NCBI RefSeq assembly: GCF_900566075.1
Contig: NZ_UPHU01000002.1
Span: forward strand, 1-64,000
Length of the DNA: 64,000 nucleotides
Reading direction: 5' to 3'
From: Mycobacterium pseudokansasii
Lineage (GTDB): Bacteria > Actinomycetota > Actinomycetes > Mycobacteriales > Mycobacteriaceae
Made by a program: the position numbers and the translations under genes. This document shows, one piece after another, positions 24,898 through 48,921 of this stretch. How positions within the stretch are numbered: the stretch's first letter is position 1; the number at the start of each line of letters is the position of its first letter. The notes below the pieces were generated by a model. The model did not search any database. It was not told the origin of the DNA and saw only the letters and a list, made by a program, of their open reading frames with translations.

Positions 24898-25050
24898 ATG
24901 GACACCACGGTTACGGTCTACACAAAGCCTGCCTGCGTGCAGTGCACTGCCACCAAGAAGGCGCTCGACACGGCTGGCGTCCTCGGTTACCGCCTGGTCG
25001 ACATCACCGAAGATTCCGACGCTCGGGACTTTGTGATGAGCCTGGGCTAC
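24898..25050 (+). pseudogene. nrdH: nrdH 5' half (glutaredoxin-like NrdH), interrupted
   Basis: ATG 24898 follows CCGGAGG at good spacing. The frame reads MDTTVTVYTKPACVQCTATK, with the redox CVQC motif, and continues through VDITEDSDARDFVMSLGY, ending after TAC 25050; then foreign sequence gives TFS and a stop at 25062. Mycobacterial NrdH continues at this point with L-x-APVVV..., and exactly that text is found at 48832-48921. NrdH supplies electrons to class Ib ribonucleotide reductase. The truncated protein keeps the active site but loses the last strand and helix, so it is unlikely to fold normally. Confidence 0.9.
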
Positions 25051-25222
25051 ACCTTCTCTTGATGGTTCGATAGTGTCTCAATGAATCGGCCCGGTTGAAC
25101 GCCGGTTTGATAGTCGTCGACCTCGTGCTCGTCACTGAGAGTCGGGTCGACGGGACGTGCACGCGCCAAACGTGCAGCGCCACTCTCAAGCACTGTCACG
25201 AAGTTGGACGGGTTTAGCGGAT
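25047..25222 (-). pseudogene. C-terminal gene fragment cut by the IS3 copy
   Basis: Leftward reading from the IS3 left end gives protein-like text (LNPSNFVTVLESGAARLARA, then DEHEVDDYQTGVQPGRFIET) ending at a TAG-type stop at 25047-25049, right at the element boundary. The N-terminal part is not recognisable beyond the IS, so it was probably deleted. Product unknown; could have been an element-borne gene lying at its left end. Confidence 0.4.
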
Positions 25223-25276
25223 TGAATCGCCCTGGAAATCCCGGAGGCTCCTGACCTTGGAAACGAGGATGCAGGT

Positions 25277-25621
25277 ATGCCGAAGGAACAATCTGCCGGG
25301 AAGTCCACAGCGCGTCGCTACAGCCCGGAGGAGAAGGCCGCCGCGGTGCGGATGGTCCGAGCCCTGCGCGCCGAGTTGGGCACCGAGCAGGGCACGGTGT
25401 CACGGGTGGCCCGCCAGCTCGGCTACGGCGTGGAGTCGGTGCGCTCCTGGGCGCGTCAGGCCGACATCGATGACGGGTACGCTCCGGGGGTGTCCAGCGC
25501 GGAGTCTGCCCGGATCAAGGAGCTCGAACAGGAGAACCGAGAACTCAAGCGCGCCAACGAGATTCTTAAGCGAGCCGCCAGTTTCTTCGGGGCGGAGCTC
25601 GACCGCCAACACAAGAAATAG
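25277..25621 (+). CDS. IS3-family transposase OrfA
   Basis: A 114-residue protein. An N-terminal helix-turn-helix (YSPEEKAAAVRMVRALRAEL, then RVARQLGYGVESVRSWARQ) binds the terminal repeats, and a leucine-zipper-like stretch (RIKELEQENRELKRANEILK) follows. The final FFGAELDR is the standard point at which IS3/IS6110-type elements shift -1 into orfB; the -1 frame here continues as PTQEIVDFIDAHREE. Intact. Confidence 0.9.
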   Translation: MPKEQSAGKSTARRYSPEEKAAAVRMVRALRAELGTEQGTVSRVARQLGYGVESVRSWARQADIDDGYAPGVSSAESARIKELEQENRELKRANEILKRAASFFGAELDRQHKK

Positions 25622-25692
25622 TCGATTTCATCGACGCCCACCGCGAGGAGTTCGGGGTCGAGCCCATCTGCACCGTCCTGCGATCTGCAGGG

Positions 25693-26538
25693 GTGTCGAT
25701 GGCCCCGAGTACCTACTACGACACCAAGTCCCGCGCCCCCTCGGCGCGCGCCCAACGCGACGCAGAGCTTGGGCCGGTCCTGGTACAGCTCTGGGAGGAC
25801 AACTACCGGGTATACGGGGTCCGCAAGCTGTGGAAAACCGCCCGTCGGGCGGGCCACGACGTCGGCCGGGATCAGGTGGCGCGGCTGATGCGGGCCGCCG
25901 GCATCGCGGGGGCGCGGCGCGGCAAACGCGTACGCACCACCACACCGGACCCGGCCGCGGCGCGACACCCCGATCTGGTCGGGCGGAAGTTCACCGCGAC
26001 CGCGCCCAACCAGCTCTGGGTGACCGATCTGACGTTCGTGCCCACCTGGGCCGGGGTGGCCTACGCCTGCTTCATCATTGATGCCTTCAGCAGGATGATC
26101 GTCGGCTGGCGAGTCGCCCCGCACATGCGCACCACGATGGTGCTCGATGCGTTGGAGATGGCCCGCTGGTCACGCGGAAACCTGTTGGCGGGCTTGACAT
26201 GTCACTCCGATGCCGGATCGCAGTTCACGTCCATCCGGTACGGTGAGCGGCTCGCCGAGATCGGCGCGGTCCCCTCGGTCGGGTCGATAGGGGACAGCTT
26301 CGATAATGCTCTGGCCGAAACGGTGAACGGCTACTACAAGGCCGAGTTGATCTACGGCCCCGCCCGCAGCGGGCCGTGGAGGACCGTCGAGGACGTCGAG
26401 CTGGCCACCCTGGGCTGGGTCTACTGGCACAACACCAGCCGCCTCCACGGCTACCTCAACGACGTACCGCCAGCCGAGTTCGAAGGCGCGTTCTACGATG
26501 CACAACGGATCGACCAACCACTGATCGGAATCCAATAG
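25693..26538 (+). CDS. IS3-family DDE transposase OrfB
   Basis: A 281-residue reading from GTG 25693, but the frame is open and protein-like from about 25600, since the active enzyme is normally an OrfAB fusion made by -1 frameshifting. The catalytic triad is visible: D in LWVTDLTFVPTW, D in CHSDAGSQFTS and E in NALAETVNGYYKAEL. Overall similarity to the IS6110 transposase is strong (for example STYYDTKSR, WRTVEDVELATLGWV). All domains are intact, so the copy may be active. Confidence 0.9.
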   Translation: MSMAPSTYYDTKSRAPSARAQRDAELGPVLVQLWEDNYRVYGVRKLWKTARRAGHDVGRDQVARLMRAAGIAGARRGKRVRTTTPDPAAARHPDLVGRKFTATAPNQLWVTDLTFVPTWAGVAYACFIIDAFSRMIVGWRVAPHMRTTMVLDALEMARWSRGNLLAGLTCHSDAGSQFTSIRYGERLAEIGAVPSVGSIGDSFDNALAETVNGYYKAELIYGPARSGPWRTVEDVELATLGWVYWHNTSRLHGYLNDVPPAEFEGAFYDAQRIDQPLIGIQ

Positions 26539-26645
26539 CCCGAGTCTCCGTCAAAACCAGGGCGATTCAAGGAGCGCTGGTGCGCCTCATCAGCGTTCGA
26601 TCACGCAGACCGTTTGCCAGCAGGCGGATACGGGACAATCACCCG

Positions 26646-27014
26646 ATGCCCACTCCAGAACCTGATGCATTTGGTCGCAGTTGGGTTGATGCCTGGAACG
26701 CCCAACGACGTCGAGATAGTCCTTGAGCACTTCGCTGAAGACGTTGTGTTCACCCCACCTGTGGCAGCCCGTGTGCTCCAAGAGAGCGCCCGGGTGGTGC
26801 GCGGAAAGGACGCACTTCGGGCCCTGTTGGAGATCGACACTTCACTAGAGCGTTCCTGACCTGGACCTGCACTTCGAGCCTTGTGGGTGTTTACGTGGGC
26901 ATCGGCGTGATCGTCATCGGCTACCGCAATCAGAATGGCGACCTCGTGACCGAAGTGCTGGTCTTCGACGAGGGCGGTCTGGTCCGCGAAGCTCACGGCA
27001 CCTACCTCATGTAG
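26646..27014 (+). pseudogene. SnoaL-like (NTF2-fold) gene, multiply frameshifted
   Basis: Reading starts at ATG 26646 (PDAFGRSWVDAWNA), jumps frame to DVEIVLEHFAEDVVFTPPVA and VRGKDALRALLE, and jumps again to VYVGIGVIVIGYRNQNGDLV and FDEGGLVREAHGTYLM ending at the TAG at 27012-27014. These are the typical blocks of a ~130-residue SnoaL-like polyketide-cyclase-fold protein. At least two indels disable it. Its last codons lie in the 85-bp repeat that begins at 27006. Confidence 0.7.
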
Positions 27015-27090
27015 ATGCGTGCAGCTGGATAGAGAGGCCGTGGCTTATCGGCGCGGTGGAAGTGGTGAGCGCTGTCTCGAATCTAGACAA
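27006..27090 (+). repeat. 85-bp direct repeat, left copy (resolvase-site-like)
   Basis: Matches 40807-40891 at 82 of 85 positions in the same orientation. It contains TGTCTCGAATCTAGACAA; just past it lie TACGTCTCG and TTGTCTCGAAAC, so several TGTCTCG-type half-sites are grouped as in Tn3-family res sites. The right copy adjoins a serine-resolvase remnant. Confidence 0.8.
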
Positions 27091-27887: not shown

Positions 27888-27917
27888 GCTTGTTCTGCAA
27901 TGTGGCAGGAGACCCGT

Positions 27918-29111
27918 GTGACCAAGGCGCAGATTCACTACGACCCCTTCGATGCGGTCATCCTCGACGATCCCTACCCGACCTACCGGGTGTTGCGTGA
28001 TGAAGCGCCCGTGTATCGCGCAGAGGAATCCAACACCTGGGTGCTCAGTCGCCACCAGGATGTGCAAGCCGCCGCGCAAGATCACGATACCTATTCCTCG
28101 GTGGACGGGATATTTCCCATGCCGCCGGGTTCGGACTTCTTCCAGTCGGTTCTGCCGATGATGATCGTGATGGATCCGCCGCGCCACAACCAGCTGCGTG
28201 CACTGGTGAGCAGGGCATTCACGCCGCGGCGCATTGCTGCTCTCAACGATGGAATTGAGGATCTGGCGCAGGATCTGTTTGAGCCTTTAGCTCAGGGGGC
28301 GGGGTCGGCGGACTTTGTGGTGGACTTCGCCGGTGTGTTGCCGGCGGTGGTGATCGCTGATCTGCTGGGCGTGCCGCGTGAGGACCGTGGAAGGTTCCGA
28401 CAGTGGTCGAGCATGCTGGTCCAAGTGGACCTCAGGCAAGGAGACAACGCGGACGCCTTGGCTGCGATGGCGTCGGTGTACGAGTATTTCACCGACTTCC
28501 TCGCCGACCGCCGCAATGCCCCGCGCGATGATTTGATGTCGGCGTTGGTGTACGCCGAGATCGATGGTGTGCGCCTCACCGACGAGGAAGTCCTCGGGTT
28601 TTGTGCGCTGCTGCTCATTGCAGGCCACGAGACCACCTCTAACCTGCTCGGCAACGCCGCCGTCGTGTTAGCTCAACACCCCGAGAGCCGTCACCGCTTG
28701 GCCACCGATCACAGCCTGCTTGGGCCCGCGGTCGAGGAGTTGCTGCGTTACGACTCACCGGCTCAGGGGCTTTCACGAACCTTGACCCGTGATGTCACGT
28801 TACGCGACACCCTGATGCGGCGCGGGGACAAGGTGCTTCTTCTGTTCGGGTCGGCCAACCGCGACGAGCGCGCCTTCCCCGATCCCGACGTGTTCGACAT
28901 CGACCGCAAACCCGAGCATCAGGTCGCCTTCGGCCGCGGCGTCCATTTCTGCCTGGGCGCCGCGTTAGCGCGGATGGAAGCCCGGATCGCGCTGGCCGCC
29001 CTGCTGAAGCGGGTACCGGACTGGGAAGTCGACCTGGCTTCCGCGCAGCGGCTGCGGTCGGGCCCGATCCGGGGCTACACCTCGTTGCCGATCACCTGGT
29101 CAGCAACCTAA
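27918..29111 (+). CDS. Cytochrome P450 monooxygenase
   Basis: A 397-residue soluble class I P450; GTG 27918 is chosen because AGGAG lies 8 bases upstream, rather than ATG 27900. Motifs: I-helix oxygen-binding LLIAGHETTSNLL, K-helix ExxR in VEELLRYDSPAQG, and the heme-cysteine loop FGRGVHFCLGAALARMEA. Length is normal. It needs a ferredoxin and reductase, which are not encoded nearby. It oxidises an unknown hydrophobic substrate; the neighbouring exporters suggest xenobiotic or lipid modification and export. Divergent from a TetR gene with a shared operator. Confidence 0.95.
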   Translation: MTKAQIHYDPFDAVILDDPYPTYRVLRDEAPVYRAEESNTWVLSRHQDVQAAAQDHDTYSSVDGIFPMPPGSDFFQSVLPMMIVMDPPRHNQLRALVSRAFTPRRIAALNDGIEDLAQDLFEPLAQGAGSADFVVDFAGVLPAVVIADLLGVPREDRGRFRQWSSMLVQVDLRQGDNADALAAMASVYEYFTDFLADRRNAPRDDLMSALVYAEIDGVRLTDEEVLGFCALLLIAGHETTSNLLGNAAVVLAQHPESRHRLATDHSLLGPAVEELLRYDSPAQGLSRTLTRDVTLRDTLMRRGDKVLLLFGSANRDERAFPDPDVFDIDRKPEHQVAFGRGVHFCLGAALARMEARIALAALLKRVPDWEVDLASAQRLRSGPIRGYTSLPITWSAT

Positions 29112-29135: not shown

Positions 29136-29831
29136 CTAGGCCGAGGCCACGGTAGTGGCCGACCCTTCCGGGTTGGTCGGTTCGGCTGGTGTGGTGGTGA
29201 TTTCGCGTCGGTGCGCGGCGAGAAAGTCATCCACGATGCGCGCGCAATCCTGGTGGTCGATGGTGTGAAGTCCGGTCAGGCGGGCGAACACGATCGGGCC
29301 GATCAGTTGAGTCAGGGCCAGCGTGAGTTCGAAATCGCCAAGTTCGGCGCGTGCGTCGGGGGTACCGAGGATCTGATCGAACGGTTCGCGGTACTGGTCG
29401 ATGACGCGCACCTTCAGGGAGCTGAGTGATTGCTGCCGATCGTGGGCATCCTCGACGTCGCCCTCGGAAGGTGGTGGCCCCAACGCGAGCCAGGCCAGGG
29501 TGGTCAGGTGGATCGGTGTTTCCTCGATCAACGCGGCCTGCCGGCTCAATAGTTCGACCAGTCGATCCCGCAGCGAACCGGTCAAGGGCGGAGGCGTGAC
29601 GTGTGGAAGCAGTCGTTCAAAGGTGGCCGCGAGAAGTTGCGCAGAGCTGCTGAAATGCCGGTAGAGAGTCGTGCGGGCAACTTTCGAGGCTTTGGTCACG
29701 GCATCGATGGTGACGGCCTCGATGCCACCGGCACTAAGCAGATGGGTGGCCGCATCAAGCAGCCGCGTCCGCGAGCGCAGCCGTCGCGGATCGATGTCAT
29801 AGCCGTCCTCGACCGAGAACTCAGAGGTCAT
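29136..29831 (-). CDS. TetR-family regulator divergent from the MFS exporter
   Basis: A 231-residue protein; ATG 29831 has GAGGAG six bases upstream and is preferred over the TTG at 29843. HTH: RLLDAATHLLSAGGIEAVTI, then DAVTKASKVARTTLYRHFSS. The C-terminal domain is helical, with an ETPIHLTTLAWLALGPPPSE region typical of ligand-binding TetR proteins. It is divergent from the DHA2 exporter gene, 131 bp away, with a 35-bp shared-motif operator in between. A truncated paralogue lies at 40477-40815. Confidence 0.85.
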   Translation of the reverse strand: MTSEFSVEDGYDIDPRRLRSRTRLLDAATHLLSAGGIEAVTIDAVTKASKVARTTLYRHFSSSAQLLAATFERLLPHVTPPPLTGSLRDRLVELLSRQAALIEETPIHLTTLAWLALGPPPSEGDVEDAHDRQQSLSSLKVRVIDQYREPFDQILGTPDARAELGDFELTLALTQLIGPIVFARLTGLHTIDHQDCARIVDDFLAAHRREITTTPAEPTNPEGSATTVASA

Positions 29832-29909
29832 CTCGCTCCTCAACCCTCAGAACCCCACAATCCTAAACCCAGACGACACTCGGCTGACGTTTCGACGACC
29901 CCACGTTGT

Positions 29910-29944
29910 GGTACTTGCAGTTGCGTAGCGAAACCGACAGTACC
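29910..29944. promoter_or_regulatory. 35-bp operator-like site upstream of the MFS gene
   Basis: Bounded by GGTACT and AGTACC (a 6-bp inverted repeat) with the core GCGTAGCGAAACCGA. The same layout with core GCGTAGCGAGACCGA recurs at 34019-34053 upstream of another tetR, and a weaker inverted copy is at about 31772-31807. It lies 18 bp before the MFS start. Confidence 0.55.
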
Positions 29945-29962
29945 TACCCAGGTGGAGGTGTG

Positions 29963-31723
29963 ATGGATTCCGGTGATCTGACGCGTTTCGCGACGGTGAA
30001 TCTGTCGCGGGCTCAGAAGCGGACGCTGGTGGTGTCGTGCCTGTCGGTGGCTTTGGTGATCGGCTCGATGGCCGCCCTGTATTCCTCGCTATCGGACATC
30101 GCGGCCCAAACCGGGGCGACCCAGAGCCAGCTGACCTGGGTCGTCGACGGATACACCCTCGCCGTGGCGTGCCTGGTGCTGCCCGCTGGCGCACTCGGTG
30201 ACCGCTACGGCCGCCGCGGGGTTCTCATCGCCGGACTCTTGGTGTTCTCGCTGGCCTCGACGATCCCGCTGTTCGTGCAAGACCCGGTCTGGCTGATCGC
30301 CGCGCGCGGCGCCGCAGGGATCGGCGCCGCGTTCGTGATGCCCTCGACCCTGTCGATCCTGACCGCCGGGTTTCCCGAGCACCAACGCGGCCGCGCCGTC
30401 GGCATCTGGGCAGGTGTGGCCGGTTCCGGCGCCATCCTGGGCGTCCTGTGCTCGGGACTGTTGCTGCAGCAATGGTCGTGGTTATCGATATTCGTCGGTT
30501 TGAGCGCCGCCGGCGTGGTCCTTTTGATCGCGGCGCTCACGCTGCCAGAGTCCCGCGAAGAATCCCATCCGGCAATGGATTACCCCGGTTCGGTATTGGT
30601 CGCAGTGGCCATCGGGTTGATGGTCATTGCCGTCACCGAAGCGCCGGCCCGCGGCTGGACCGATCCGGTGGTGTTCGGGCATTTCGCCGCCGGTCTGGTG
30701 GCGTCGGCGATCTTCGTCGTCGTGGAGTTACGCGCGGAGCATCCGCTGCTGCAGTTGCGACTGTTCACCGACCGGGGTTTCGGCAGCGGCACGCTGTCAA
30801 TCATCCTGCAGTTCGCGGTGATGTTCGGCGTGTTCCTGCTGCTTGTGCAGTACCTGCAGCTCATCGTGGGCTATCAGCCGTTGCAGTCGGCACTGGCCCT
30901 GGCGCCCATCATCGTTCCGATCGTGTCAATTTCGTTGGTCGCGCCGCGGCTGGCCGAACGCCTGGGTCTGCGTTTGCTCACCGTGCCGGGTCTGCTAATC
31001 ATCGCCGCCGGGCTGTACATGGTCAGCCGGCTTTCGGTAGACGCGGCCTACACCGACATACTGTTTCCGCTGCTGAGCTTGGGCACCGGGTTGGGGTTGT
31101 GCACCGCGCCGGCCACCGCGGCCATAGTGGCCGCGACACCGGTGGACAAGCACGGTGTGGCCGCCGCAGTCAACGACGCCGCCCGGGAAGTGGGCGCAGC
31201 GCTCGGCATCGCCGTCGCCGGCAGCGTCCTGGCTGCCGACTACACCAACCGCATCCAACCCGCCCTGGCGACGCTGCCCGCCCAAGCGCAGGAACCGTTC
31301 TCCGACTCCCTGGCCGCAGCACTGAAAGTCGCTGCGCAATCGGGACCGTCCGCGCAACGGCTTACCGACGTGGCCAAAGCCGCGTTCGTGCACGGCAACG
31401 GCCAAGCCGCCCTGGTGCTGTCGATCATCACCATCATCAGTGCCCTGATCCTCGCGGTATGGGCGCCCGGCCGCCCACGCAGCGCTGCGGACTCCGCCGA
31501 AGGGCAACCAGCCCAACGGGTCACATCCGGGCGGCAGGCCCGATCCGAGGGCCAGTCAGCCGACGGCCAACGCGAGTCTGACCAGCCGGCGAACCGGTTC
31601 GGCCGGGCAGCACCACGAGCTTCGACGGTGATCCTCAGTGACAACACCGGAATCCGGCGCCGACGCGACGCCGGTCCAGCTGCCCCCGTACACCGCGACA
31701 TTCATGGGTTGTGGTCCCGATAA
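29963..31723 (+). CDS. MFS drug exporter, DHA2 (EmrB/QacA) family
   Basis: A 586-residue protein; ATG 29963 follows GGAGG by five bases. About 14 hydrophobic segments, beginning SCLSVALVIGSMAALYSSLS, with the motif A LGDRYGRRGVLIAG between TM2 and TM3 and motif C-like GIWAGVAGSGAILGVLCSG in TM5, typical of 14-TM proton antiporters. The last ~75 residues after VWAPGRP are polar, Arg/Ser/Gln-rich and disordered, longer than usual. It exports drugs or metabolites across the inner membrane. Divergent from tetR 29136-29831. Confidence 0.9.
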   Translation: MDSGDLTRFATVNLSRAQKRTLVVSCLSVALVIGSMAALYSSLSDIAAQTGATQSQLTWVVDGYTLAVACLVLPAGALGDRYGRRGVLIAGLLVFSLASTIPLFVQDPVWLIAARGAAGIGAAFVMPSTLSILTAGFPEHQRGRAVGIWAGVAGSGAILGVLCSGLLLQQWSWLSIFVGLSAAGVVLLIAALTLPESREESHPAMDYPGSVLVAVAIGLMVIAVTEAPARGWTDPVVFGHFAAGLVASAIFVVVELRAEHPLLQLRLFTDRGFGSGTLSIILQFAVMFGVFLLLVQYLQLIVGYQPLQSALALAPIIVPIVSISLVAPRLAERLGLRLLTVPGLLIIAAGLYMVSRLSVDAAYTDILFPLLSLGTGLGLCTAPATAAIVAATPVDKHGVAAAVNDAAREVGAALGIAVAGSVLAADYTNRIQPALATLPAQAQEPFSDSLAAALKVAAQSGPSAQRLTDVAKAAFVHGNGQAALVLSIITIISALILAVWAPGRPRSAADSAEGQPAQRVTSGRQARSEGQSADGQRESDQPANRFGRAAPRASTVILSDNTGIRRRRDAGPAAPVHRDIHGLWSR

Positions 31724-33375: not shown

Positions 33376-34008
33376 TTAGTCGAATCCGGCTAGAGTGAGC
33401 CTCAAGGCTTGTTCCAGTTGGACGTGGAGCGGTGGACTCGTTTTGGTGTCGGTGCTAATCCAGCGCCGAAGTATGAATTGTGCGGTGGCCAAACCCGTGT
33501 GGACCAGCAGCGAGGGACGGATGTCGGTCACCGCGTCGACGCCCATGTGCGTGGCGACCAGTTCGATGAACCGGTGGTTATCGTTCTCGCTGATCAGCGC
33601 CGATTCGCTCAGTAGGTGGGGGGCGGTCCGGATGGCTTCTCGCCAGTATTGCAGATTCTGATTTGCTGTGTCCCAAGCGGTTTCGATAAGCAGACGCATC
33701 AGAGTCTCGGTTGCTGATGCGTCGGACGGCTGGGCGCTGTAGGACGCAATGATTTCGGCGACCATTTGCCGGACGGGTGCGACAAGCAGGTCTTCCTTGG
33801 TGGGTGCGTAGCGGAAGTAGGTACTGATCGAGATTCCGGCCGCGGCCGCGATGTCCTCGGTTGTCACGGCAGCGAATCCGCGTTCGGCGAAAAGCTGGTG
33901 TGCGATGTTTTGGATTTCGGAGATCAACTTGGCGCGGCGTCGGTCCCGTAACGAGCGGATGTTTGCTGACGGCATGCCATCACCGTCGATGTGACATTCC
34001 AACTGCAT
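33376..34008 (-). CDS. TetR-family regulator
   Basis: A 210-residue protein starting at ATG 34008 (an internal ATG at 33975, MPSANIRSLRDRRRAK, is also possible). HTH: EIQNIAHQLFAERGFAAVTT, then EDIAAAAGISISTYFRYAPT. The C-terminal domain is helical with a Trp/Tyr-rich NLQYWREAIRTAPHL segment. The 35-bp operator-like site at 34019-34053 lies directly upstream, and its partner precedes the MFS gene, so this protein is a candidate regulator of that exporter as well as of itself. Confidence 0.85.
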   Translation of the reverse strand: MQLECHIDGDGMPSANIRSLRDRRRAKLISEIQNIAHQLFAERGFAAVTTEDIAAAAGISISTYFRYAPTKEDLLVAPVRQMVAEIIASYSAQPSDASATETLMRLLIETAWDTANQNLQYWREAIRTAPHLLSESALISENDNHRFIELVATHMGVDAVTDIRPSLLVHTGLATAQFILRRWISTDTKTSPPLHVQLEQALRLTLAGFD

Positions 34009-34018
34009 GATGAGCTAT

Positions 34019-34053
34019 GGTACGAATAGTAGCGTAGCGAGACCGAAGGTACT
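34019..34053. promoter_or_regulatory. 35-bp operator-like site upstream of tetR 33376-34008
   Basis: Starts GGTAC, ends GGTACT and holds the core GCGTAGCGAGACCGA; 26 or so of its 35 positions match the site before the MFS gene (29910-29944). It lies 10 bp from the tetR start. Confidence 0.55.
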
Positions 34054-34398
34054 GGGGGTGTTTTCTTGCCGGTGTCGCAGCGTCGGGCCCTTTGGGTTGT
34101 GTGAGGAATTGCCGCTACCCGCATGGGTATTCGCTATCCGAGTGCGCCGGAATCGTCCGCCGATCGGGTCCGCGTTTTCGCACCGCGGTCTGGACGGCAC
34201 AGCTTCAGTACCCACTCATGGCTGTGCCACCAGTACGCTCGTGCTAGCCCCGTTTACCGCACTCGCAGCTCTTGCGGTTGCGCTTGCGGGTGCACGCATG
34301 TCCAACGGTCTGCAAAGACATCGTCTTCCCCGAATGGGGATTTGAGGAATGTCATCCCGCCACCTCTTCGTCGAAAGGCCTAACCCCGAAGTGACGTC

Positions 34399-39600: not shown

Positions 39601-39686
39601 TCACCGGCCGCAACCTTTTGAAGTCGCTCCCGAACAGGGCGACTCAAGGTCGCCACACCTGAAGAAACCCGCCCGCTGTCTGCCAT
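36600..39686 (-). CDS. MmpL-type RND transporter
   Basis: A 1,028-residue RND exporter. N-terminal TM1 (VLVIGMWVVTAAALAVLF), a periplasmic porter domain, TM2-6 with GAGTDYSVFLISRYHE, a second large extracellular loop (about 440-830) and TM7-12 with VAVGADYNMLLISRLREE; the two Asp-Tyr pairs are the MmpL proton relay. The second loop contains a long helical, Gln/Ala-rich segment with the paired cysteines WCATTPECAQL, the coiled-coil insertion of MmpL4/5-type proteins. No MmpS partner gene is nearby. It would export a lipid or drug; the coupled hydrolase is its only operon mate. Confidence 0.95.
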   Translation of the reverse strand: MADSGRVSSGVATLSRPVRERLQKVAAGEGAYSDRLARLAGFSIRHKVLVIGMWVVTAAALAVLFPQLETVVRQQSVTLIPRDAPSLQTVDRMGAAFGEQGSKTTIFVAMEDPAGLTAPVRQRYNTMISRLRADSEHVRLVQDLLADPVTAGQAVSRDGKAWYVPVGVAGTLGDLNAAESVQAVRKIATQAFSGSATNVRVTGPPATFRDQIASAEEDLVVISVATAGLIAVILLIVYRSVFTALLPLLVIGVSLAVGRGVLSAWGESGMPVSQFTIAFMTVILLGAGTDYSVFLISRYHEQRRQNVPPDLSVINATATIGRVILASAATVAFAFLAMVFAKLSVFAALGPACAIAVLVGFAATVTLFPPVLALAAKRGIGEPKADRTRRYWNWIAVAVVRRPVPLLVASLALVSGLAAVALTMHVSYDDRQGQPKTTASNEGYHLLDRHFRKDTIVTEFMVVESPTDMRTSKALADLDEMASRVSQLPGVTKVSGVTRPTGTRLDQAQLSWQNGQIGNKMAGAVAKGDAHKDDLAKLTHGADQLAGGLAQLDTTLRAALTPLTGILTQAQSSGSQVQRFRPLLQQLSATAPAVDQAIRAGPGLRQQADQAQNAIAAIDPLVGALNTSPWCATTPECAQLRDQVQILVALRNSGFFSQLANLGDLYQPGSGTAAGTVADVRNAITSLDKAFGALGDPADLAGNIRRLQSGISQLASGAQALATGVHTLADSNIEMLSGMSQIATQLQNSARTTAGSDNASGFYLPTNAFENRQFADVAKHFLSPDGKTARFAIESSYDPYSSDAMNLAHKITEVADGARPNTSLANATVSMAGFPAVNSDIQRLLAADFHQLAIATLVIVGLILVVLLRALVAPLYLLGTVVLNYGAALGLGTLVFQYGFGKEIAWPVPLLAFIILVAVGADYNMLLISRLREESAHNIRVGVLRTVANTGSVITSAGLIFAASMFGLIVGSIAIMIQAGFIIGCGLLLDTFVVRTLTVPAIATLLREASWWPQRKSLIHNGRPHRTT

Positions 39687-40398: not shown

Positions 40399-40476
40399 GT
40401 TAGTTGCCGAACCAATCGACCGATGCAGGCGCGATTCGGTGGGGCCCGCGTACGCGCGCGGTTTACGGTGAACTAC

Positions 40477-41565
<1,089 letters not shown>

Positions 41566-43035
41566 GTGCCATTGTTCCTGTCGTTCGTGGGCCCGTCCTT
41601 GGTACGCAAGCACCTCGGTGGACAGGTCTTGGACCCGGCCGAAGTTGTGCGGTTGCTGGAGGATCGGGCGATCCCGGCGGGTACACCGGTATTTCTCGAC
41701 GAGATGACGATGCTGCCGATCGAGCCGTTGTGTTCGTGGTTTCGCCACCTGGCGTACGACGATAAGGACGCCAAGACGTTGCATGAGTACGCCTACATCG
41801 TGCGGCGCTTTGTCCACTTCCTTCAGTCCCGCGGCCGCGGCCTGCTTGATCCGACCGAATCAGACTTCCAGGCATACCGCGTTCTGCGGACCCAGACGCA
41901 GGACAAGCCGGTCGGTGATACGACGTGGGCGAAGGAAGCCCAACTGCTCAACCAGCTCTACCGATGGCTGGTCGAACACGGCCATTTGGGGCACCGACCG
42001 CTGCGGATGACCCGCAAGGGTGGCAATCCGCTGGCGCCCCGCGTGCAGCGGGGCATGGACATCCGGCACATGACCCTGGCACAGTACCGGTACTTCCGCG
42101 ACGTCGGTCTCGGCGGCCAACTTCCGAATTCTCAGGTCAGCCCGGTGTTCCGGGGCCGGGCGCCGCTGCGTAACCGGGCCGCCGCGGATTTAGCGCTAAG
42201 CACGGGGATGCGCCCGGAAGAGTGGTCGACAGTGTTACTGCCCGAACTCGGTGCCGGACGGCGCCGGCCCGGCGAGCCGGTTGACTTTGCGGTGCAGGCA
42301 TGCGCGAAGTACGGCAAGTACCGCGAGATCTACGTTCCCACTGCGGCGGTGGATGCTGTGGACAACTTCCTGCTGATCGAGCGCCCGGAGCTCGTCGCCG
42401 CCTCGGCGAGGTCGTTGGCGCGGCGACGCCGGGAGTTGTTTGTGGTCGACCGCGTTGATCACGAGGCGGGAAAGCTGCGTGGTGTCCTTGACGGTCAGCG
42501 CCGGACGTTCACCATGTCCGCGATGGAGCCGGACCTGCGGCGGATCACGATGCAGGAGAACGAGAATGGTGTCGAGCCGCTGGCGGTTTTCATCGGCCAC
42601 GGCGGTCAGATGCTCGGCCCGTCCTCCTGGTACCGGATCCGCTGCGACGCCTGGGAGCGGATGCAGGTTCACGCCGGTCACCCCGAGGCGCCGGTGCTGC
42701 CCCGGCGGCGGTGGAGATGGCACGACACCAGGCACACCTTCGCATTGCAACTGCTGTCCTATCTAGAACGGCAGATGGACGGCGACGAGCCGGACGCGGT
42801 GGCGCGGCGCCGACGCCACCTGGCCTATCTGGGCGGTCACATCAAGCACAACCCGTTGCTGATCGTCAGCCGCAGACTCGGACACTCCAGCCCAGCGAGC
42901 ACGTACGCCTACCTGGAGTACACGGACGACCCGATGAACGCGGTGGACGCCGCGTTCTCAGCGTGGACGGTGCAGGAAGGTGACACCTACGCCGATATCG
43001 CCCGCCGGATGCTCACCGAGGCCGGTGACCGCTGA
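41566..43035 (+). CDS. Tyrosine recombinase 1 (TnpA-like of a Tn554-type module)
   Basis: About 489 residues; GTG 41566 or TTG 41572, the latter having GGGGAG at better spacing. An N-terminal SAM-like core-binding domain (KTLHEYAYIVRRFVHFLQSR) precedes the catalytic domain: first arginine in STGMRPEEWSTVLL, lysine region around KYGKYREIYV, HxxR in WHDTRHTFALQL, and LGHSSPASTYAYLEY with the nucleophilic tyrosine. All catalytic residues are present. It starts a four-gene operon with every junction overlapping, so the proteins probably act as one complex, as TnpA, B and C do in Tn554. Confidence 0.85.
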   Translation: MPLFLSFVGPSLVRKHLGGQVLDPAEVVRLLEDRAIPAGTPVFLDEMTMLPIEPLCSWFRHLAYDDKDAKTLHEYAYIVRRFVHFLQSRGRGLLDPTESDFQAYRVLRTQTQDKPVGDTTWAKEAQLLNQLYRWLVEHGHLGHRPLRMTRKGGNPLAPRVQRGMDIRHMTLAQYRYFRDVGLGGQLPNSQVSPVFRGRAPLRNRAAADLALSTGMRPEEWSTVLLPELGAGRRRPGEPVDFAVQACAKYGKYREIYVPTAAVDAVDNFLLIERPELVAASARSLARRRRELFVVDRVDHEAGKLRGVLDGQRRTFTMSAMEPDLRRITMQENENGVEPLAVFIGHGGQMLGPSSWYRIRCDAWERMQVHAGHPEAPVLPRRRWRWHDTRHTFALQLLSYLERQMDGDEPDAVARRRRHLAYLGGHIKHNPLLIVSRRLGHSSPASTYAYLEYTDDPMNAVDAAFSAWTVQEGDTYADIARRMLTEAGDR

Positions 43036-44957
43036 TGCCGCGCCGCGGAGATCACCAGCGTGAATTCCCACCGGTCCCCGAGCAGCCGGCGCCGGCGGCC
43101 CGCATCGGCATTCGGATGGTGCGAGCTACAAACCGAAGCGGGACGTTGCGGGAAGTCACGTTCGACCCCAACGAGTTCCGGTGCGCTCGGTTGGCCGGTG
43201 AGCTGGCCGACGAATGGGCCGACTACGCCGAGACCAGCAAAATCTCGCACGATTCGGTCGCTCACGGTCAACGATCGATCCGACACTTCTGCACGAAAGT
43301 CGACCTGCTACTCGGCGAGGACGCCCACCGGGCCAGTTTGAACGGCCAGCACCCCGACGTGGCGGCCGTATTGGACGAATGGGAGCGATCCCTTCCCACC
43401 GGCTACCCAGCGGGCTCGACGACACCGGCCGGATTCGCCAGGAGTGTGCGAGCGCTGATCGCGCGCCGCGCACAGCACGAACAGCGACCCGTCACCCCGA
43501 ATCTGCGTCGCCTGGTCGACGGCGCGATCGGAGTGCCCGCAGGCAGCAGCCAGGAACTCGACGAGTTCTCCCGCACGGACAAACGTGCCCTGGTCCGCGC
43601 AGCATGGGCGTGGGCACACCAGCTGGATACCCGACTTGCCGACGGTTGGGCATCGGCCGCACGGGGGCGGCACCCCGCCGAGCACGGGTGGACCGACGTC
43701 ACAAACCTGCTCTGGGGCCTCGCCCGTCAGCAGATCACGCCGAGACAGATCCGCGAGAACCTGCCCGTCGTTGCACGGTGGCCAGCGGAGTTGCGGGCCT
43801 GCATCGAACAGTCTGGTCGGCCCGTCTATCCAGGACTCGCGAAGATGCTCCTGGTGCGTTGGCTGGTGAGCCAGCTCTACCCCGCTCACCTCGACCTACA
43901 CCCCTACCGGGTTCTGCTCGTGGCGGCCACCGGGCACGCGCCCGAGGAGGTCACCGCGCTGACCGACACCGATGTCGAGTTCCTTCCCTCGGGCGTCCGG
44001 CTGACTCTGATCAAGCGGCGGGCCCGGCAGGTCCGGCACCGCACCTTCGGCACCGAGGCATCTCCGGACACGGTCGGTGAGCCGGTCGACTTCACCGACC
44101 GGCCCCACCGGGAAGTCAGCGCGATCATCCGGCGCCTCATGCACGTCACCGAGCAGGCCCGGCAGCGGGCGCCAGGGACAGCTGGTCGATTGTTTGTGGC
44201 GGCATCGGTCACGCAGGCCTACGAGTTGCGCATCGCGTGGTGGGCCGCCAACAAAGAGCGGTCCGGATTCCTGGACTGGCTGGCCGGAGCAGGCGTGACG
44301 GTCGAGGGAGCACCCGACATCCGCCGGCTGCGCAAGTCGACGAAGGTCGAGAAGGCCATCGCCTTCGGCGGTCGGATCGCCGACGCGGCCAACGACCACC
44401 ACGAGGAAGTGTTCCGGGGGCACTATGCCCAGGGCACCACCTTGCGCGTGATGTCTGGCCAGGTGATCTCTACAGCCCAGGACCACTGGTTCTTCACGGC
44501 GCTGCAAGGGCCGACGGTGCTCACCAGCTCCACCGACGTACTGGACGCACCAGATCCGGCGGCGACATTGGGCCTGACCAGACAGCAGGCCGAGGACATC
44601 CGCCGCGGGGCACTCGACATGGGACTGACCCAATGCTCTGATCCGCACAACTCCCCCTATGGGCGGTCAGGAGAGTTGTGCCCGGTAGCGCCGCTGCGAT
44701 GTCTGGAATGCCGCAACGCGTGGATCCTGCCCAGCGATCTACCTCAGCTTTTGTTGTTCGCTGAGCACCTCGATCGGCTCCGGCTGCGGTTGTCCCCGCA
44801 GCACTTCGCCGAGCTGTGGGGACAAAGCCACGCCAACCTGCAAGCAGTTCTGGCCGAACGCACGGATGAGGAGAAAGCGTTGGCCGGCAAGCACATCGAG
44901 GCCGGTGAGGCCGATCTGCATCTGCCCCTGGCCGCGGACGTGGAGTTCGACCGTTGA
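43035..44957 (+). CDS. Recombinase-like protein 2 (degenerate catalytic residues)
   Basis: A 640-residue protein, ATG 43035 overlapping the previous stop (TGATG). The C-terminal domain follows tyrosine-recombinase layout: LLVAATGHAPEEVTALTDTD takes the place of the first catalytic block but has Ala where Arg is expected, DIRRLRKSTKVEKAI is the box II analogue without the usual HxxR, and VFRGHYAQGTTLRVM supplies H and Y. The final 100 residues contain C..C pairs (LCPVAPLRCLECRNAW). It is probably a structural partner rather than an independent catalyst. Confidence 0.7.
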   Translation: MPRRGDHQREFPPVPEQPAPAARIGIRMVRATNRSGTLREVTFDPNEFRCARLAGELADEWADYAETSKISHDSVAHGQRSIRHFCTKVDLLLGEDAHRASLNGQHPDVAAVLDEWERSLPTGYPAGSTTPAGFARSVRALIARRAQHEQRPVTPNLRRLVDGAIGVPAGSSQELDEFSRTDKRALVRAAWAWAHQLDTRLADGWASAARGRHPAEHGWTDVTNLLWGLARQQITPRQIRENLPVVARWPAELRACIEQSGRPVYPGLAKMLLVRWLVSQLYPAHLDLHPYRVLLVAATGHAPEEVTALTDTDVEFLPSGVRLTLIKRRARQVRHRTFGTEASPDTVGEPVDFTDRPHREVSAIIRRLMHVTEQARQRAPGTAGRLFVAASVTQAYELRIAWWAANKERSGFLDWLAGAGVTVEGAPDIRRLRKSTKVEKAIAFGGRIADAANDHHEEVFRGHYAQGTTLRVMSGQVISTAQDHWFFTALQGPTVLTSSTDVLDAPDPAATLGLTRQQAEDIRRGALDMGLTQCSDPHNSPYGRSGELCPVAPLRCLECRNAWILPSDLPQLLLFAEHLDRLRLRLSPQHFAELWGQSHANLQAVLAERTDEEKALAGKHIEAGEADLHLPLAADVEFDR

Positions 44958-47035
44958 GCCAGCAGCAACCAATCCCTCAGCCCAGTAGCGTCTTCGACGC
45001 CGACGAACCTGTCATCGGCTCCCATCCGCTGCTGCCCGACGCTCGGGTGCCGCAGTTCGGGAACACCGAGGCATGGAACCTCAACGGCGTCATCCGCCGA
45101 CCGGCCAACCTCGCCGCGGCTGCCTGGACATTGGTGTTCTCCGACGAACTGACTGAGCCGTCGTGGAATCTGCTGGCGCGGGAGTTGAGCATGATCATGT
45201 TCAACCCACGGCACCCGGCAGTCACCGCCGCGGGCCTCTACCTCAAACCCGCACCGGCCAACCCAGCCACGGTGCTCAGCAGGTTGAGCCACCTGCGGCG
45301 ATTAGCGAGGTGGGGTCACATGAACGGACTGCCGCCGCAGCTGACGGACTGGCACGAAACCGACCTGCGGCGCCCGATCCGGGATTTGCGCGGACAGCTG
45401 GCGGCCAACACGATCCGGAACTACGTCACGACCCTGAAAACATTGCACCAATACGGGCCCGCCCTGACCGGTCACGGACTGCGAAGTGACCCCTGGGCAG
45501 GCAAAAGCGCCCGCAAAGCGTCACACACTGCCAAGGGTGCGGTTGTGTCCACGCCCGCCATACCGCCCGAACAATGGTTCCCGTTGATCCGCTCCGCCTG
45601 GACCTACGTGCACACCTTCGCTCCCGACATCCTGCGAGCGCAGCAGCGATACCAAGAGCTCATCGACAAGGCAACGCTGGTGGGCGACCACGACTTGCGA
45701 CTGGACCGGTACCTCGCCGACCCCACGAACCCCATCCCGGTTCATGCCGAAGCCGGCCGCAATCAAGGCAGGGTGCACTGGTCCCTGCTGACATTGATGA
45801 TCGGCTCGGATCACAGCCGGCGGAGTAACGTCTTCCGCCGCAATATCTCTACCGGCGGCCAACGAATCACCCGAGTCAAGAAGGCGGTCGCACAAGGACA
45901 TCCGACCACGACCGGCATCATCGACGACCTCGTTCTTGTCGAACACAGCAACGGTACGAGTGCCTCCTGGCATCCCGGGCTCGACCCTCGCGCTCTAGGG
46001 TTCGAGCGCTGCATGCTTCGTAACGCCTGCTACGTGCTGGTCGTGGGCCTGTCGATGATGCGTGACTCGGAGATCCATGAGATCGCCCCCGGCTCGATCG
46101 TCGACTACTACGGAACACCAGCTATTAAATCCACGAAGAGAAAACACGACCCCGGCCTGCCGATCAAGCACTGGTGGATCACCGCTCCGGTCGCCGAAGC
46201 CGTGGTCGTCGCGGAGCAGCTGTCCACCCGACCCGACCGGCTCTTTCCACCCCTGCTCCGACACAATGCCGCTGTCTCCCGCAGCGATCAGATGCTTGAC
46301 GCCTTCGCCGCACACATCAACGCCACCAGCGCCCGGACCGGACTGCAGCAGATCCCGCCCGGCCAGATACGACCACACATGTTTCGACGAACAATGGCGA
46401 TGTTGACCGACCAGTTCCCCGGCAGCGAGATCGCCTTAGGCATCCAGCTCAAACACATCGCTTCCAGAGCGCTGGCCAACCATTCGACCCAGGGCTACGC
46501 CAACGCCGACGGTTCTTGGGCCGGGCATTTGGAGTCCGCGATCGAAGTAGCCCGGTTCCGACGACTCGAGGACCTTTACCAAGAACACAAAGCCGGGAAA
46601 CCGATCGGCTACGGCCCCGGCGCCGAACAGATGACGCAAATCTTTGACGACCTTCAGAACAGAGTCCAAGCTCGAGCCGGCGACGCGAGCGTCGAACGAG
46701 CCCTGCTCCGAAAAGCCCGCATCTCCATACGGTTCGGCGTCCTCAACCACTGCGTCATGGATGAGAACAACCCAGCCGGCGCAGCCTGTCTGGAAAACGC
46801 CGTCGTTCCTCAAGGCCACAAGGGACCGCTACACGATCGGTGTCGCCCGGACCGATGCCCCAACAGCGTCATCGGCCCCGAGCACGTCCCCATTTGGGCC
46901 TCGGAGAGACGTAACCTGCTCACCCTCATCGCCACGCCAGGAGTGTCGACCTGCCGCAGGGAAGCGCTGCAATGTGAATTGAGCGCCGTCGAATCTGTCC
47001 TCGACAAGACCGATGGCGAAAAGGAGCAGCCGTGA
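44954..47035 (+). CDS. Tyrosine recombinase 3 (TnpB-like of a Tn554-type module)
   Basis: A 693-residue protein from TTG 44954 overlapping the upstream TGA. Core-binding domain around TVLSRLSHLRRLARWGHMNG; catalytic domain with R in VVGLSMMRDSEIHEI, lysine around IKSTKRKHDPG, HxxR in RPHMFRRTMAMLTDQ, and LKHIASRALANHSTQGYA with a candidate tyrosine. The C-terminus has a cysteine cluster (HCVMDE...CLENA...HDRCRPDRCPN) that may bind zinc. It is longer than average tyrosine recombinases, as is common in this trio. Confidence 0.8.
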   Translation: MSQQQPIPQPSSVFDADEPVIGSHPLLPDARVPQFGNTEAWNLNGVIRRPANLAAAAWTLVFSDELTEPSWNLLARELSMIMFNPRHPAVTAAGLYLKPAPANPATVLSRLSHLRRLARWGHMNGLPPQLTDWHETDLRRPIRDLRGQLAANTIRNYVTTLKTLHQYGPALTGHGLRSDPWAGKSARKASHTAKGAVVSTPAIPPEQWFPLIRSAWTYVHTFAPDILRAQQRYQELIDKATLVGDHDLRLDRYLADPTNPIPVHAEAGRNQGRVHWSLLTLMIGSDHSRRSNVFRRNISTGGQRITRVKKAVAQGHPTTTGIIDDLVLVEHSNGTSASWHPGLDPRALGFERCMLRNACYVLVVGLSMMRDSEIHEIAPGSIVDYYGTPAIKSTKRKHDPGLPIKHWWITAPVAEAVVVAEQLSTRPDRLFPPLLRHNAAVSRSDQMLDAFAAHINATSARTGLQQIPPGQIRPHMFRRTMAMLTDQFPGSEIALGIQLKHIASRALANHSTQGYANADGSWAGHLESAIEVARFRRLEDLYQEHKAGKPIGYGPGAEQMTQIFDDLQNRVQARAGDASVERALLRKARISIRFGVLNHCVMDENNPAGAACLENAVVPQGHKGPLHDRCRPDRCPNSVIGPEHVPIWASERRNLLTLIATPGVSTCRREALQCELSAVESVLDKTDGEKEQP

Positions 47036-47472
47036 GCAGCCGTCCCGAGGTCTCCGATGATGATGAGCACGACGAGGGAGTGTCGCCTCGTGCTGCGAAA
47101 CGCTTACGCGAGGCCATGGATCGACTGCTGGCCGGTCGCCCGCAACGCACCGACGGACGGCTGATCAAAGACAATCTCTGGAAAGAGGCCGGCGTCAGCC
47201 GCGCCACCATGAACCGAGCCACGCGGATACTGGCTGAATGGGACACCCGGATCACCGCCTCCGACGCATTCACTCCGCGCGAGGCACGCAAGAACGACGA
47301 ACTATGCACTCTGCGAGGAAAACTCGCGGACAAGACACGCGAATGCACGGACCTGCACCGTCAACTCGACGCGGCTGCCACCGCGATCGCCGCCCTGCAC
47401 CACGACAACACCCTGCTACGTCAAGAACTTGACCAGCACGGCCGGCTCGTCGCCCTGAAAGTTCACCGCTGA
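47032..47472 (+). CDS. Small coiled-coil protein (TnpC/DUF6262-like)
   Basis: A 146-residue protein from GTG 47032 overlapping the previous TGA. The N-terminal half has a helix-turn-helix-like WKEAGVSRATMNRATRIL, and the C-terminal half is a long coiled coil (LRGKLADKTRECTDLHRQLD, then AALHHDNTLLRQELDQHG). Proteins of this size and layout close Tn554-type recombinase operons, where TnpC sets orientation and frequency of transposition. Assignment rests on context plus composition. Confidence 0.7.
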   Translation: MSSRPEVSDDDEHDEGVSPRAAKRLREAMDRLLAGRPQRTDGRLIKDNLWKEAGVSRATMNRATRILAEWDTRITASDAFTPREARKNDELCTLRGKLADKTRECTDLHRQLDAAATAIAALHHDNTLLRQELDQHGRLVALKVHR

Positions 47473-47594
47473 GGCCAAATTGCCCAGCCAATTCGCGTTG
47501 TCGCACCAAGATCGATCACGGCCAGAGCCAAGCCAGTCCAGTGTTGTAGGGCCTGATACACGTTCCGCGGCCGACTGGTCGTGTGATGCACGGG

Positions 47595-48382
47595 TCATGC
47601 CTGCGATGCTTCCTGACGCCAGACATCGAGGATGTCGGAACGCAATGGGTACCCGCCCTGCAGCCGCGGGCGCTTGCCTGCCTCGAAATCGGCTGCGAGG
47701 GAACGGAGCCGCTCAGCACCCCCGTGCGGCCCACCCGTTGGCGATTACCCAGGAGTAGACCGAGTCTGCCGGAAGCCGGTAACCGCCGTCTTTGAGACGT
47801 GCGCAGTACAGCGACGGCGTCGCGGCGGTCCAGTGACCCAGCCAGGTCGTTCGCCATGTTGACCGAGTGCGTGAGCGTCTTCAATCCTTCAACCACAATC
47901 GGATCGAGCCCGGAGCTCGGCTCCAGACGAACTGCGGGGCCGAGCAGTTTGGGTTGTGCGGCGGCCGCCCATGCGTCGACTTCGCCATTACCCCAAGGGA
48001 CCACGCAAAGCGCTCGCGTTCGTGGGTCGTCGGCGATCTCACCCAGCTTCTCGCGAGTAGGCCACGCTGCGTGTACAGGACCGCCGTACCAACCGGTGGC
48101 GCGACTCCGCCACGTCCCAACAGCTACCCCGGTCCGGTTGACGAACTCGGGCAGAAGCCGGTTGTTACTGACGTTCGCTAGTCCTTCTCGGATTTCGACT
48201 CTGACCGACTGGTCGCTCCGCGCAAGGCCAAGGGCTATCGCCCACAGGACGGGAAACTTTTCAGAACGCACTGGCTTTCGCTCGCTGAAAACGTTCCGCT
48301 CGTGACCATTGCGCTCCCGCGTCCCTTTGCCGGTCACATAGTCATCGCGAGAAGGGCCAAAGGACGCGGTGGGATAGTGCAA
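47595..48382 (-). pseudogene. Unrecognised gene with at least two frameshifts
   Basis: Leftward text is continuous from about 48310 (KFPVLWAIALGLARSDQSVR, LPEFVNRTGVAVGTWRSRAT, HSVNMANDLAGSLDRRDAVA), changes frame to GGYRLPADSVYSWVIANGWA, then again to ERLRSLAADFEAGKRPRLQG and YPLRSDILDVWRQEASQA, ending at 47595. The product is not recognised; the tail recalls small conserved actinobacterial proteins. It is convergent with the recombinase operon at the element's right end, a cargo relic. Confidence 0.55.
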
Positions 48383-48797
48383 TCGCTGCAGTTGCGAGAA
48401 AGGTCAGGCAAACACGCGATGAGAAGGATAGATGCCTAGTAAAGCCCTACACCTGGGACGCTCGGGAGGCTGCGCGAACAGCAGCCTGAACAGCAGGTGT
48501 GCCGTCAATTCAGCGTCGTAGTACTCCGGAACGGGCACTGGACTAGTCCACAACTAAAGGGTTATCAACAAATATCACAATGCTGCTTAAATATCCCAGA
48601 TGAGCGTTGTTTTGCGCCATTCAGGGCATATAGAATAGGGGCAACGACGTCGTCCTTAAATGGAGACATGACGACCCGGAGAAGAATGTAAAACATCACC
48701 GTCACCCAACATCCGCCTCAGTGCAATGGCATACAACATTTCGGCGCTTCAGAAAGCTGGAATTCGTGCACCGCAGCCCAGAACAACGAGAATCCGG
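48383..48797. other. Non-coding right end of the element
   Basis: No gene. AT content rises towards 48550-48700. The terminal motifs of the element lie at its right edge. Confidence 0.5.
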
Positions 48798-48813
48798 ATG
48801 TCTCATGAGACAT
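48798..48813. promoter_or_regulatory. 16-bp palindrome near the element's right end
   Basis: ATGTCTCATGAGACAT is a perfect palindrome 16 bp inside the right boundary. The left end has one arm only (TGTCTCAATGA at 25074). A likely recombinase binding site. Confidence 0.55.
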
Positions 48814-48831
48814 ACGGATGCTGGAGAATAC

Positions 48832-48921
48832 CTCTCAGCGCCAGTCGTCGTCGCGGGTAACGAGCACTGGTCGGGATTCCGGCCCGACCGCATCAAGGCC
48901 GTCGCCAACCAGGCGGCCTGA
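48832..48921 (+). pseudogene. nrdH: nrdH 3' half
   Basis: In the frame restored by deleting 25051-48831 this reads LSAPVVVAGNEHWSGFRPDR and IKAVANQAA, then TGA at 48919-48921. It is the C-terminal strand-helix of mycobacterial NrdH, including the APVVV cis-proline region and the WSGFRPD signature. It has no start codon of its own. The next gene begins seven bases later, showing that nrdH and the PAPS-reductase-like gene were one operon before the insertion. Confidence 0.9.

What the first reader, a model, noticed from the sequence alone, without database searches (positions are those of the whole stretch)
24898..48921. A 23.8-kb Tn554-like element splits nrdH
The 5' half of nrdH (24898-25050) ends after ...VMSLGY and the 3' half (48832-48921) resumes LSAPVVVAG..., giving a full-length mycobacterial NrdH if 25051-48831 is removed; TAC is the only sequence shared at the joints. 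Inside the ends are matching inverted motifs (TTCTC and TGTCTCA). The right end carries three tyrosine-recombinase-like genes plus a small coiled-coil gene, the Tn554 transposition layout. The halves and the motifs are seen in sequence; the NrdH identity and Tn554 analogy are established knowledge; that these recombinases made the insertion is inference.
Basis: partly seen in the sequence, partly recalled or inferred. Interest (0 to 1): 0.9.

Follow-up and report, generated by a model that had tools for sequence, protein, structure and literature searches.

The report
Mobile element homing to plasmid nrdH
A 23.8-kb piece of mobile DNA with its own four-gene insertion kit sits inside the redoxin gene nrdH of a mycobacterial plasmid, and close relatives sit at the same codon of nrdH in other mycobacteria, which points to a new actinobacterial branch of a recently described, poorly understood class of jumping element.

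Summary
nrdH is split by a 23,775-bp element (25054-48828) on a 117-kb mycobacterial plasmid contig. A related M. aubagnense plasmid has nrdH whole between homologous neighbours. The same family interrupts nrdH at the same codon in M. gordonae (twice), Ca. M. methanotrophicum and M. moriokaense: 5 insertions in 4 host genomes. A core-plus-left-end pattern hits 4 of 396 genomes of the genus; its control hits none. Each host also keeps a full-length nrdH; four split copies share a contig with a MobF relaxase, the fifth is on a named plasmid.

The Tn554 label is only partly right. The cassette is a catalytic recombinase, a recombinase-fold protein lacking Arg-I and Tyr, a large catalytic recombinase, and a small helical protein. 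[quoted passage not shown] A cargo-free 6.2-kb relative in Rhodococcus opacus, compared with an empty site, fixes a 6-bp core and follows the SE rule for it; the window and M. moriokaense hexamers do not clearly do so. Tfp similarity is weak. New here: SE-type elements in Actinobacteria, repeatedly found in accessory nrdH. Movement by copy-out is inferred.

The parts
24898..25050 (+). N-terminal part of nrdH (51 codons); continues 3 codons into the element and stops at 25060-25062
   Evidence: NCBIfam GlrX_NrdH positions 1-47 of 72
25048..25053 (.). left 6-bp core (attL), TACACC
   Evidence: register from the left ends of relatives and the R. opacus empty site
25054..25080 (+). left terminus of the element, TTCTC...GGTT...TGTCTCA
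   Evidence: same motif at the left end of relatives
25277..26538 (+). IS3-type transposase genes (cargo)
   Evidence: Pfam HTH_Tnp_1, rve, HTH_21
27900..29111 (+). cytochrome P450 (cargo)
   Evidence: Pfam p450
29136..29843 (-). TetR regulator (cargo)
29906..31723 (+). MFS transporter (cargo)
33376..35013 (.). two TetR regulators (cargo; 33376-34008 minus, 34399-35013 plus)
35707..39686 (-). alpha/beta hydrolase and MMPL transporter (cargo)
40423..41260 (+). short ORFs with a TetR_N domain and with a partial serine-resolvase N-terminal domain (cargo, apparently degraded)
41566..43035 (+). intA-like tyrosine recombinase, 489 aa, with R216, H386, R389, H440, Y449
   Evidence: Pfam Phage_int_SAM_1; alignment of 15
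43035..44957 (+). tfp-like protein, 640 aa: recombinase fold in the model, no Arg-I and no Tyr; four invariant Cys
   Evidence: alignment of 16; model and PDB comparison
44954..47035 (+). intB-like large tyrosine recombinase, 693 aa, with R370, H475, R478, H501, Y515
   Evidence: alignment of 15
47032..47472 (+). srap-like small protein, 146 aa: helical, HTH-like N-terminal part plus a long helix (82-136)
47473..48798 (.). right module, AT-richer towards the end (GC 0.51 in the last 400 bp against 0.65 in the cassette), 96-97% identical in M. gordonae
48799..48828 (+). right terminus, palindrome TGTCTCATGAGACA then CTGGAGAA
48829..48834 (.). right 6-bp core (attR), TACCTC
48832..48921 (+). C-terminal part of nrdH
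   Evidence: NCBIfam GlrX_NrdH positions 48-72 of 72

Best explanation
This is a 23.8-kb cargo-loaded integrative element of the SE type, inserted by its own four-gene cassette (intA-tfp-intB-srap order) into an accessory, plasmid-borne copy of nrdH. The two catalytic recombinases are thought to cut around a 6-bp core that, in the circular form, lies between GAGAA and TTCTC arms; the catalytically dead middle protein and the small protein would build the complex and set its orientation. In mycobacteria the family uses the conserved Gly-Tyr|Leu codons of nrdH as its habitual address and rides on plasmids. Shown: the insertion, its ends, the 6-bp core (with an exact empty site for the R. opacus relative), the cassette, and recurrence at the same codon in five nrdH genes. 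Inferred: that this cassette did the inserting, that it moves through a circle by a copy-out route, and that plasmid carriage is how it spreads.
For: Whole nrdH in a related plasmid: M. aubagnense NZ_CP122995 has nrdH intact between homologues of the window's neighbours (81% over 444 residues to the left; PAPS reductase 83% and MobF relaxase 71% to the right), with other genes in between. Recurrence: the same left end after nrdH residue GY or GH in M. gordonae (two different nrdH genes), Ca. M. methanotrophicum and M. moriokaense; right ends joined to nrdH C-parts in M. gordonae (two contigs) and M. moriokaense. Specificity: pattern in 4 of 396 genomes, control 0. Self-sufficiency: the R. opacus relative is 6,168 bp and its four genes fill it; Rhodococcus sp. 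WAY2 has that site empty, giving CACGAG in attB and attL and CAAGGT in attR, the placement described for SEs. The hexamers at the two ends are identical in 4 of the 9 elements whose both ends I placed. Cassette order, catalytic residues and lengths match the four-gene cassette beside blaGMA-1 in pAQU1, which I take for its SE (545, 614, 671, 161 aa); the small protein matches Srap (hhalign E 1.9e-6). Vehicle: a MobF relaxase lies on the same contig as the split nrdH in 4 of 5 cases.
Against: The middle protein does not match SE Tfp convincingly by sequence (E 0.033, probability 1.5%). No exact empty site was found for the window itself. In the window and in M. moriokaense the hexamer that looks like normal nrdH is at attR, not at attL (TACACC in 0 and TACCTC in 3 of 37 intact nrdH copies), opposite to the SE rule. 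Hexamers differ between the ends in 5 of 9 elements: window, L039, L040, L055 (GGACGG/TGATGG) and L059 (CAGGCT/CACTTT, read; the script misplaced its left end). In the window and M. gordonae cargo lies between the left end and intA, whereas in SEs intA adjoins the left end. R. opacus shows that the family can use a site other than nrdH. No movement was observed.
Confidence: 0.78

Rival explanations
1. [quoted passage not shown]
For: Four-gene operon with three recombinase-like genes and a small helical protein, cargo, AT-rich far end, hybrid attL/attR; GInts are known at the end of a ribonucleotide reductase alpha-subunit gene in P. aeruginosa (PMC5385486, parts 1-3 of 6 read).
Against: In GInts the third gene is the one lacking catalytic residues (PMC10214605, legend in section 3); here it is the second. 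No GInt sequence was compared.
Confidence: 0.25
2. A Tn554-family transposon.
For: 6-bp footprint, large second catalytic recombinase and a small accessory protein, all described for Tn554 in PMC10214605.
Against: An extra conserved recombinase-fold gene lies between the two catalytic ones; Tn554 lacks it (PMC10214605). No Tn554 sequence was compared.
Confidence: 0.08
3. The element at nrdH is a composite: the left end and cargo come from one element, the cassette and right end from another that landed beside it, followed by deletion. (This is about its history and can be true together with the SE reading.)
For: Window and M. gordonae share 41431-48831 at 96-98% but only that stretch and nrdH match between them; cargo differs and left ends are only partly alike.
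Against: A search for remnants of a second cassette in the window cargo and the M. gordonae cargo gave only two weak hits (E 0.010 and 0.012).
Confidence: 0.3

Closest known systems
[quoted passage not shown]
   Same: Gene order intA-tfp-intB-srap; RHRY in the two integrases and not in the middle protein; large IntB; small protein similar to Srap; 6-bp core; few target sites inside genes (SE-6283 uses bcp, a peroxiredoxin gene; PMC9345347, section 6 read).
   Different: Actinobacterial hosts; target nrdH; cargo on the intA side in two members; SE-6283 carries its own bcp, this element carries no second nrdH; protein similarity is weak for Tfp.
[quoted passage not shown]
   Same: Four-gene cassette, cargo, AT-rich far end, hybrid att sites.
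   Different: Order of catalytic and non-catalytic recombinases; the GInt 3' end is described as poorly conserved, here the right end carries a conserved palindrome and arm.
Tn554 family
   Same: 6-bp footprint, two catalytic recombinases of which one is large, small accessory protein.
   Different: Tn554 has no middle protein.
RIT, recombinase-in-trio elements
   Same: Three adjacent recombinase genes.
   Different: In the archetype the recombinases are 315-410 aa and all have the Tyr (PMC10214605, section 13); here 489, 640 and 693 aa, one without Tyr.

Membership tests
SE | four-gene cassette in the order intA, tfp, intB, srap | tested here: met
   A-B-C-D order in the window and in relatives with the full set; the reference cassette in pAQU1 has the same order. 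Ca. M. methanotrophicum lacks C and D in the stretch fetched.
SE | RHRY in IntA and IntB, absent from Tfp | tested here: met
   A: R216, R389, H440, Y449 in 15 of 15, H386 in 14 of 15; C: R370, H475, R478, H501, Y515 in 15 of 15; B: no Arg at the Arg-I position and no Tyr at the Tyr position in 16 of 16, read by eye from the alignment (4 of 16 have an Arg one residue earlier)
SE | middle protein has a tyrosine-recombinase fold | tested here: met
SE | sequence similarity to SE proteins | tested here: inconclusive
   hhalign against the pAQU1 cassette: IntA 4.8e-7 (expected for any two such recombinases), Tfp 0.033, IntB 4.1e-4, Srap 1.9e-6; mismatched pairs were run for B only, 0.37 and 0.11
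SE | 6 bp of attB goes to attL, donor 6 bp goes to attR | tested here: inconclusive
   met for R. opacus against the WAY2 empty site; the window and M. moriokaense hexamers point the other way
SE | imperfect inverted repeats of 13-19 bp at the ends | tested here: inconclusive
   window: TTCTC and TGTCTCA on both sides, spacing differs by 4 bp; Streptomyces members pair better by eye
SE | strand-biased circle, no empty site left | not testable with these tools
   needs DNA from the host
GInt | third gene (ginC) is the recombinase lacking the catalytic residues | tested here: not met
   the second gene lacks them, the third has all five
GInt | sequence similarity to GinA-GinD | not tested
   no GInt protein was fetched
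Tn554 | three-gene set TnpA, TnpB, TnpC without a fourth | tested here: not met
   four conserved genes
Tn554 | sequence similarity to TnpA-TnpC | not tested
   no Tn554 protein was fetched
RIT | three recombinases of 315-410 aa all with catalytic Tyr | tested here: not met
   lengths 489, 640, 693; B lacks Tyr

The most novel reading that the evidence does not exclude
The element is addressed to other mobile DNA. By recognising near-invariant codons of nrdH, a gene found on many actinobacterial plasmids, it lands on transmissible plasmids while the full-length copy of each host stays intact, so a housekeeping codon serves as a vehicle-finding signal.
Probability: 0.35. Interest if true: 0.75.

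Novelty: new variant of a known kind. Interest (0 to 1): 0.62.

Why it matters
SEs have been described as confined to Gammaproteobacteria (PMC10214605), and their copy-out movement is a new, unresolved mode for tyrosine recombinases. An actinobacterial branch with a natural 6.2-kb cargo-free member, conserved ends and a known empty site gives a second system in which that mode can be tested. It also shows a mobile element repeatedly found in a gene that plasmids carry, and it names a likely carrier of efflux and P450 genes between mycobacterial plasmids.

Tried and rejected
Phage origin: the first integrase had no match in 50,697 phage records at E 1e-5. Chance motif: rejected by the pattern control. 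An assembly join: rejected because relatives repeat both joints. Another element splitting nrdH in M. dioxanotrophicus, where an MMPL gene and a two-recombinase cassette lie near the PAPS reductase gene: an intact nrdH-like gene lies downstream and no split copy was found in the 30 kb read. Sequence search of PDB chains with the B and C profiles gave nothing relevant. The order-level draw gave only the window itself at E 1e-100 (1 of 397). The family draw gave 10 of 401 genomes at E 1e-30, of which five are at 27-31% identity. Distant cassettes in other mycobacteria (31-34% to B; loci L025-L032) showed no nrdH piece in the stretches held; their targets were not worked out. The genome-contig scan returned six loci, one of them at 25% only. 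For L054 no right end was found, and for the Rhodococcus MAG the target is unknown. Searches for papers on nrdH as an integration site or on actinobacterial SEs or GInts showed none in their listings (library of open full texts only). Of PMC8190616, PMC7276702 and PMC10121019 I saw passages only.
Full report
What is there. The window is the first 64 kb of a 117,445-bp contig of a 6.43-Mb mycobacterial genome in two contigs; with two MobF relaxase matches I take the contig for a plasmid. nrdH is interrupted: the N-terminal piece 24898-25050 and the C-terminal piece 48832-48921 match adjoining parts of the NrdH profile (positions 1-47 and 48-72 of 72). The element's termini are TTCTC...TGTCTCA (from 25054) and TGTCTCATGAGACAT...CTGGAGAA (to 48828), with a hexamer on each side, TACACC and TACCTC. 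The element is 23,775 bp. The interrupted gene reads on for three codons and stops.

Is it an insertion? Yes, by comparison. On the M. aubagnense HPB1.1 plasmid nrdH is whole, and it lies between homologues of the window's neighbours: an 81% match to the protein at 21540-23447 on the left, and PAPS reductase (83%) and MobF relaxase (71%) on the right. Other genes lie in between on that plasmid, so this shows the gene order, not the exact empty bases. The exact empty site is known only for the R. opacus relative (below).

Is the site a habit? The scan of 84,980 species genomes for close relatives of the 640-aa protein gave five loci at 74-98% identity and one at 25%. M. gordonae has the cassette at 98%. 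Its draft genome holds two nrdH N-parts (contigs C215, C121) with the same left end and two C-parts (C109, C45) with the same right end, all with hexamer TACCTG, in two clearly different nrdH genes. Which left end belongs to which right end is not known. M. moriokaense has both parts (hexamers CACGTG and CACCTG). Ca. M. methanotrophicum has a left end after an nrdH N-part on a 282-kb plasmid; a C-part was not found in its genome and the third and fourth genes are absent from the 25.9 kb fetched, so it looks decayed. R. opacus is different: its element lies in a non-nrdH plasmid site, and its three nrdH copies, one with an internal stop, are not split. For the Rhodococcus MAG the target was not identified. 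A pattern made of the core codons plus the left end occurs five times in four of 396 genomes of the genus, all of them these insertions; the reversed control pattern does not occur.

Where does it sit? In the window genome, M. gordonae, M. moriokaense and Ca. M. methanotrophicum there is one full-length nrdH each; in the window genome it is on the 6.3-Mb chromosome, and in the two drafts I infer the chromosome from its 84-95% identity. The split copies are separate. A MobF (TrwC) relaxase lies on the same contig as the split nrdH in the window, on M. gordonae C109 and C45 and on M. moriokaense C14. No TrwC match was found in the Ca. M. methanotrophicum genome, but its record is a plasmid. nrdH is common on actinobacterial plasmids: the N-part region matched 54 plasmid records, most of them actinobacterial. 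Selection against hits in the main copy could explain the bias as well as a real preference could.

What moves it? Four genes, 41566-47472, overlapping by 1-4 bases, in the same order in relatives with the full set. A and C have the complete catalytic set; B models with the recombinase fold but has neither Arg-I nor Tyr. B and C each have four invariant Cys in the C-terminal part. D is a helical, HTH-like domain followed by a long helix. The R. opacus member is 6,168 bp and is filled by these genes, so they can be the whole mobile unit. Comparison with the empty site in Rhodococcus sp. WAY2 gives the core: attB CACGAG, attL CACGAG, attR CAAGGT. Of nine elements whose both ends I placed, four (L056, L060, L061, L062) have the same hexamer on both sides and five do not (window, L039, L040, L055, L059).

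What is it most like? SEs, by gene order, catalytic residues, lengths and the Srap match, and by the 6-bp placement in R. opacus (PMC10214605: section 3 part 1 of 2, sections 12 and 13, and passages read; PMC9345347: outline, section 6 and section 5 part 1 of 2 read). The SE of pAQU1 was identified by me from its four-gene cassette beside blaGMA-1, which the paper says that SE carries. SE-6283 inserts in bcp, a peroxiredoxin gene, and carries its own bcp; here the target is also a thiol-redox gene but no second nrdH is carried. GInts are the other candidate (PMC5385486: parts 1-3 of 6 read), but there the non-catalytic protein is third. Tfp similarity is weak, and GInt and Tn554 proteins were not compared, so the filing under SE rests on anatomy.

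Results that do not fit neatly. The nrdH hexamer is TACCTG in 31, TATCTG in 3 and TACCTC in 3 of 37 intact copies, read from 36 of 38 loci examined. The window's attL hexamer TACACC is in none of them, while attR TACCTC is natural. In M. moriokaense likewise the Leu-coding hexamer is at attR. Either the target alleles were unusual, or the hexamer placement is not strict (heteroduplex repair, as proposed for GInts). Second, the window and M. gordonae share 41431-48831 at 96-98% but differ in cargo and partly in the left end, so the left module has been exchanged, by a route not known.

Cargo. IS3 transposase, P450, MFS transporter, three TetR regulators, a hydrolase, an MMPL transporter, and short ORFs with TetR and resolvase domains. 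The MMPL gene has relatives at about 77% on other mycobacterial plasmids. No function is claimed for the cargo.

Verdict. A real, precise, recurrent insertion; a new actinobacterial branch of an SE-type element; accessory nrdH as its habitual address in mycobacteria. Copy-out movement and vehicle-seeking are inference.

Noticed in passing
L033 832-5851 (G000:C1 about 1660832-1665851): A second, distant cassette (27-30% to A, B and C) in the chromosome of the same genome.
   Followed up: no
L066 12031-17619 (M. chubuense NBB4 pMYCCH.01): A distant cassette of the same order (25-41%), next to mercury genes merA/merB and about 2 kb from an intact nrdH.
   Followed up: partly
L120 15112-18954 (M. 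dioxanotrophicus plasmid): A two-recombinase plus DUF6262 cassette with TetR and MMPL genes upstream of the PAPS reductase gene; looks like a Tn554-type set in a mycobacterium.
   Followed up: partly
window 43035-47035: Proteins B and C each have four invariant Cys (B 534, 549, 556, 559; C 600, 612, 630, 635), possibly metal-binding.
   Followed up: no
window 48185-48353: A stretch of the right module is 74% identical in M. moriokaense although most of the rest of the module shows no match.
   Followed up: no
window 20137-21687: TnpB-type OrfB protein (IS605/Cas12f-like) upstream of nrdH.
   Followed up: no
L053 13957-19575: In Ca. M. methanotrophicum molybdenum-cofactor genes stand where the third and fourth cassette genes would be.
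   Followed up: no
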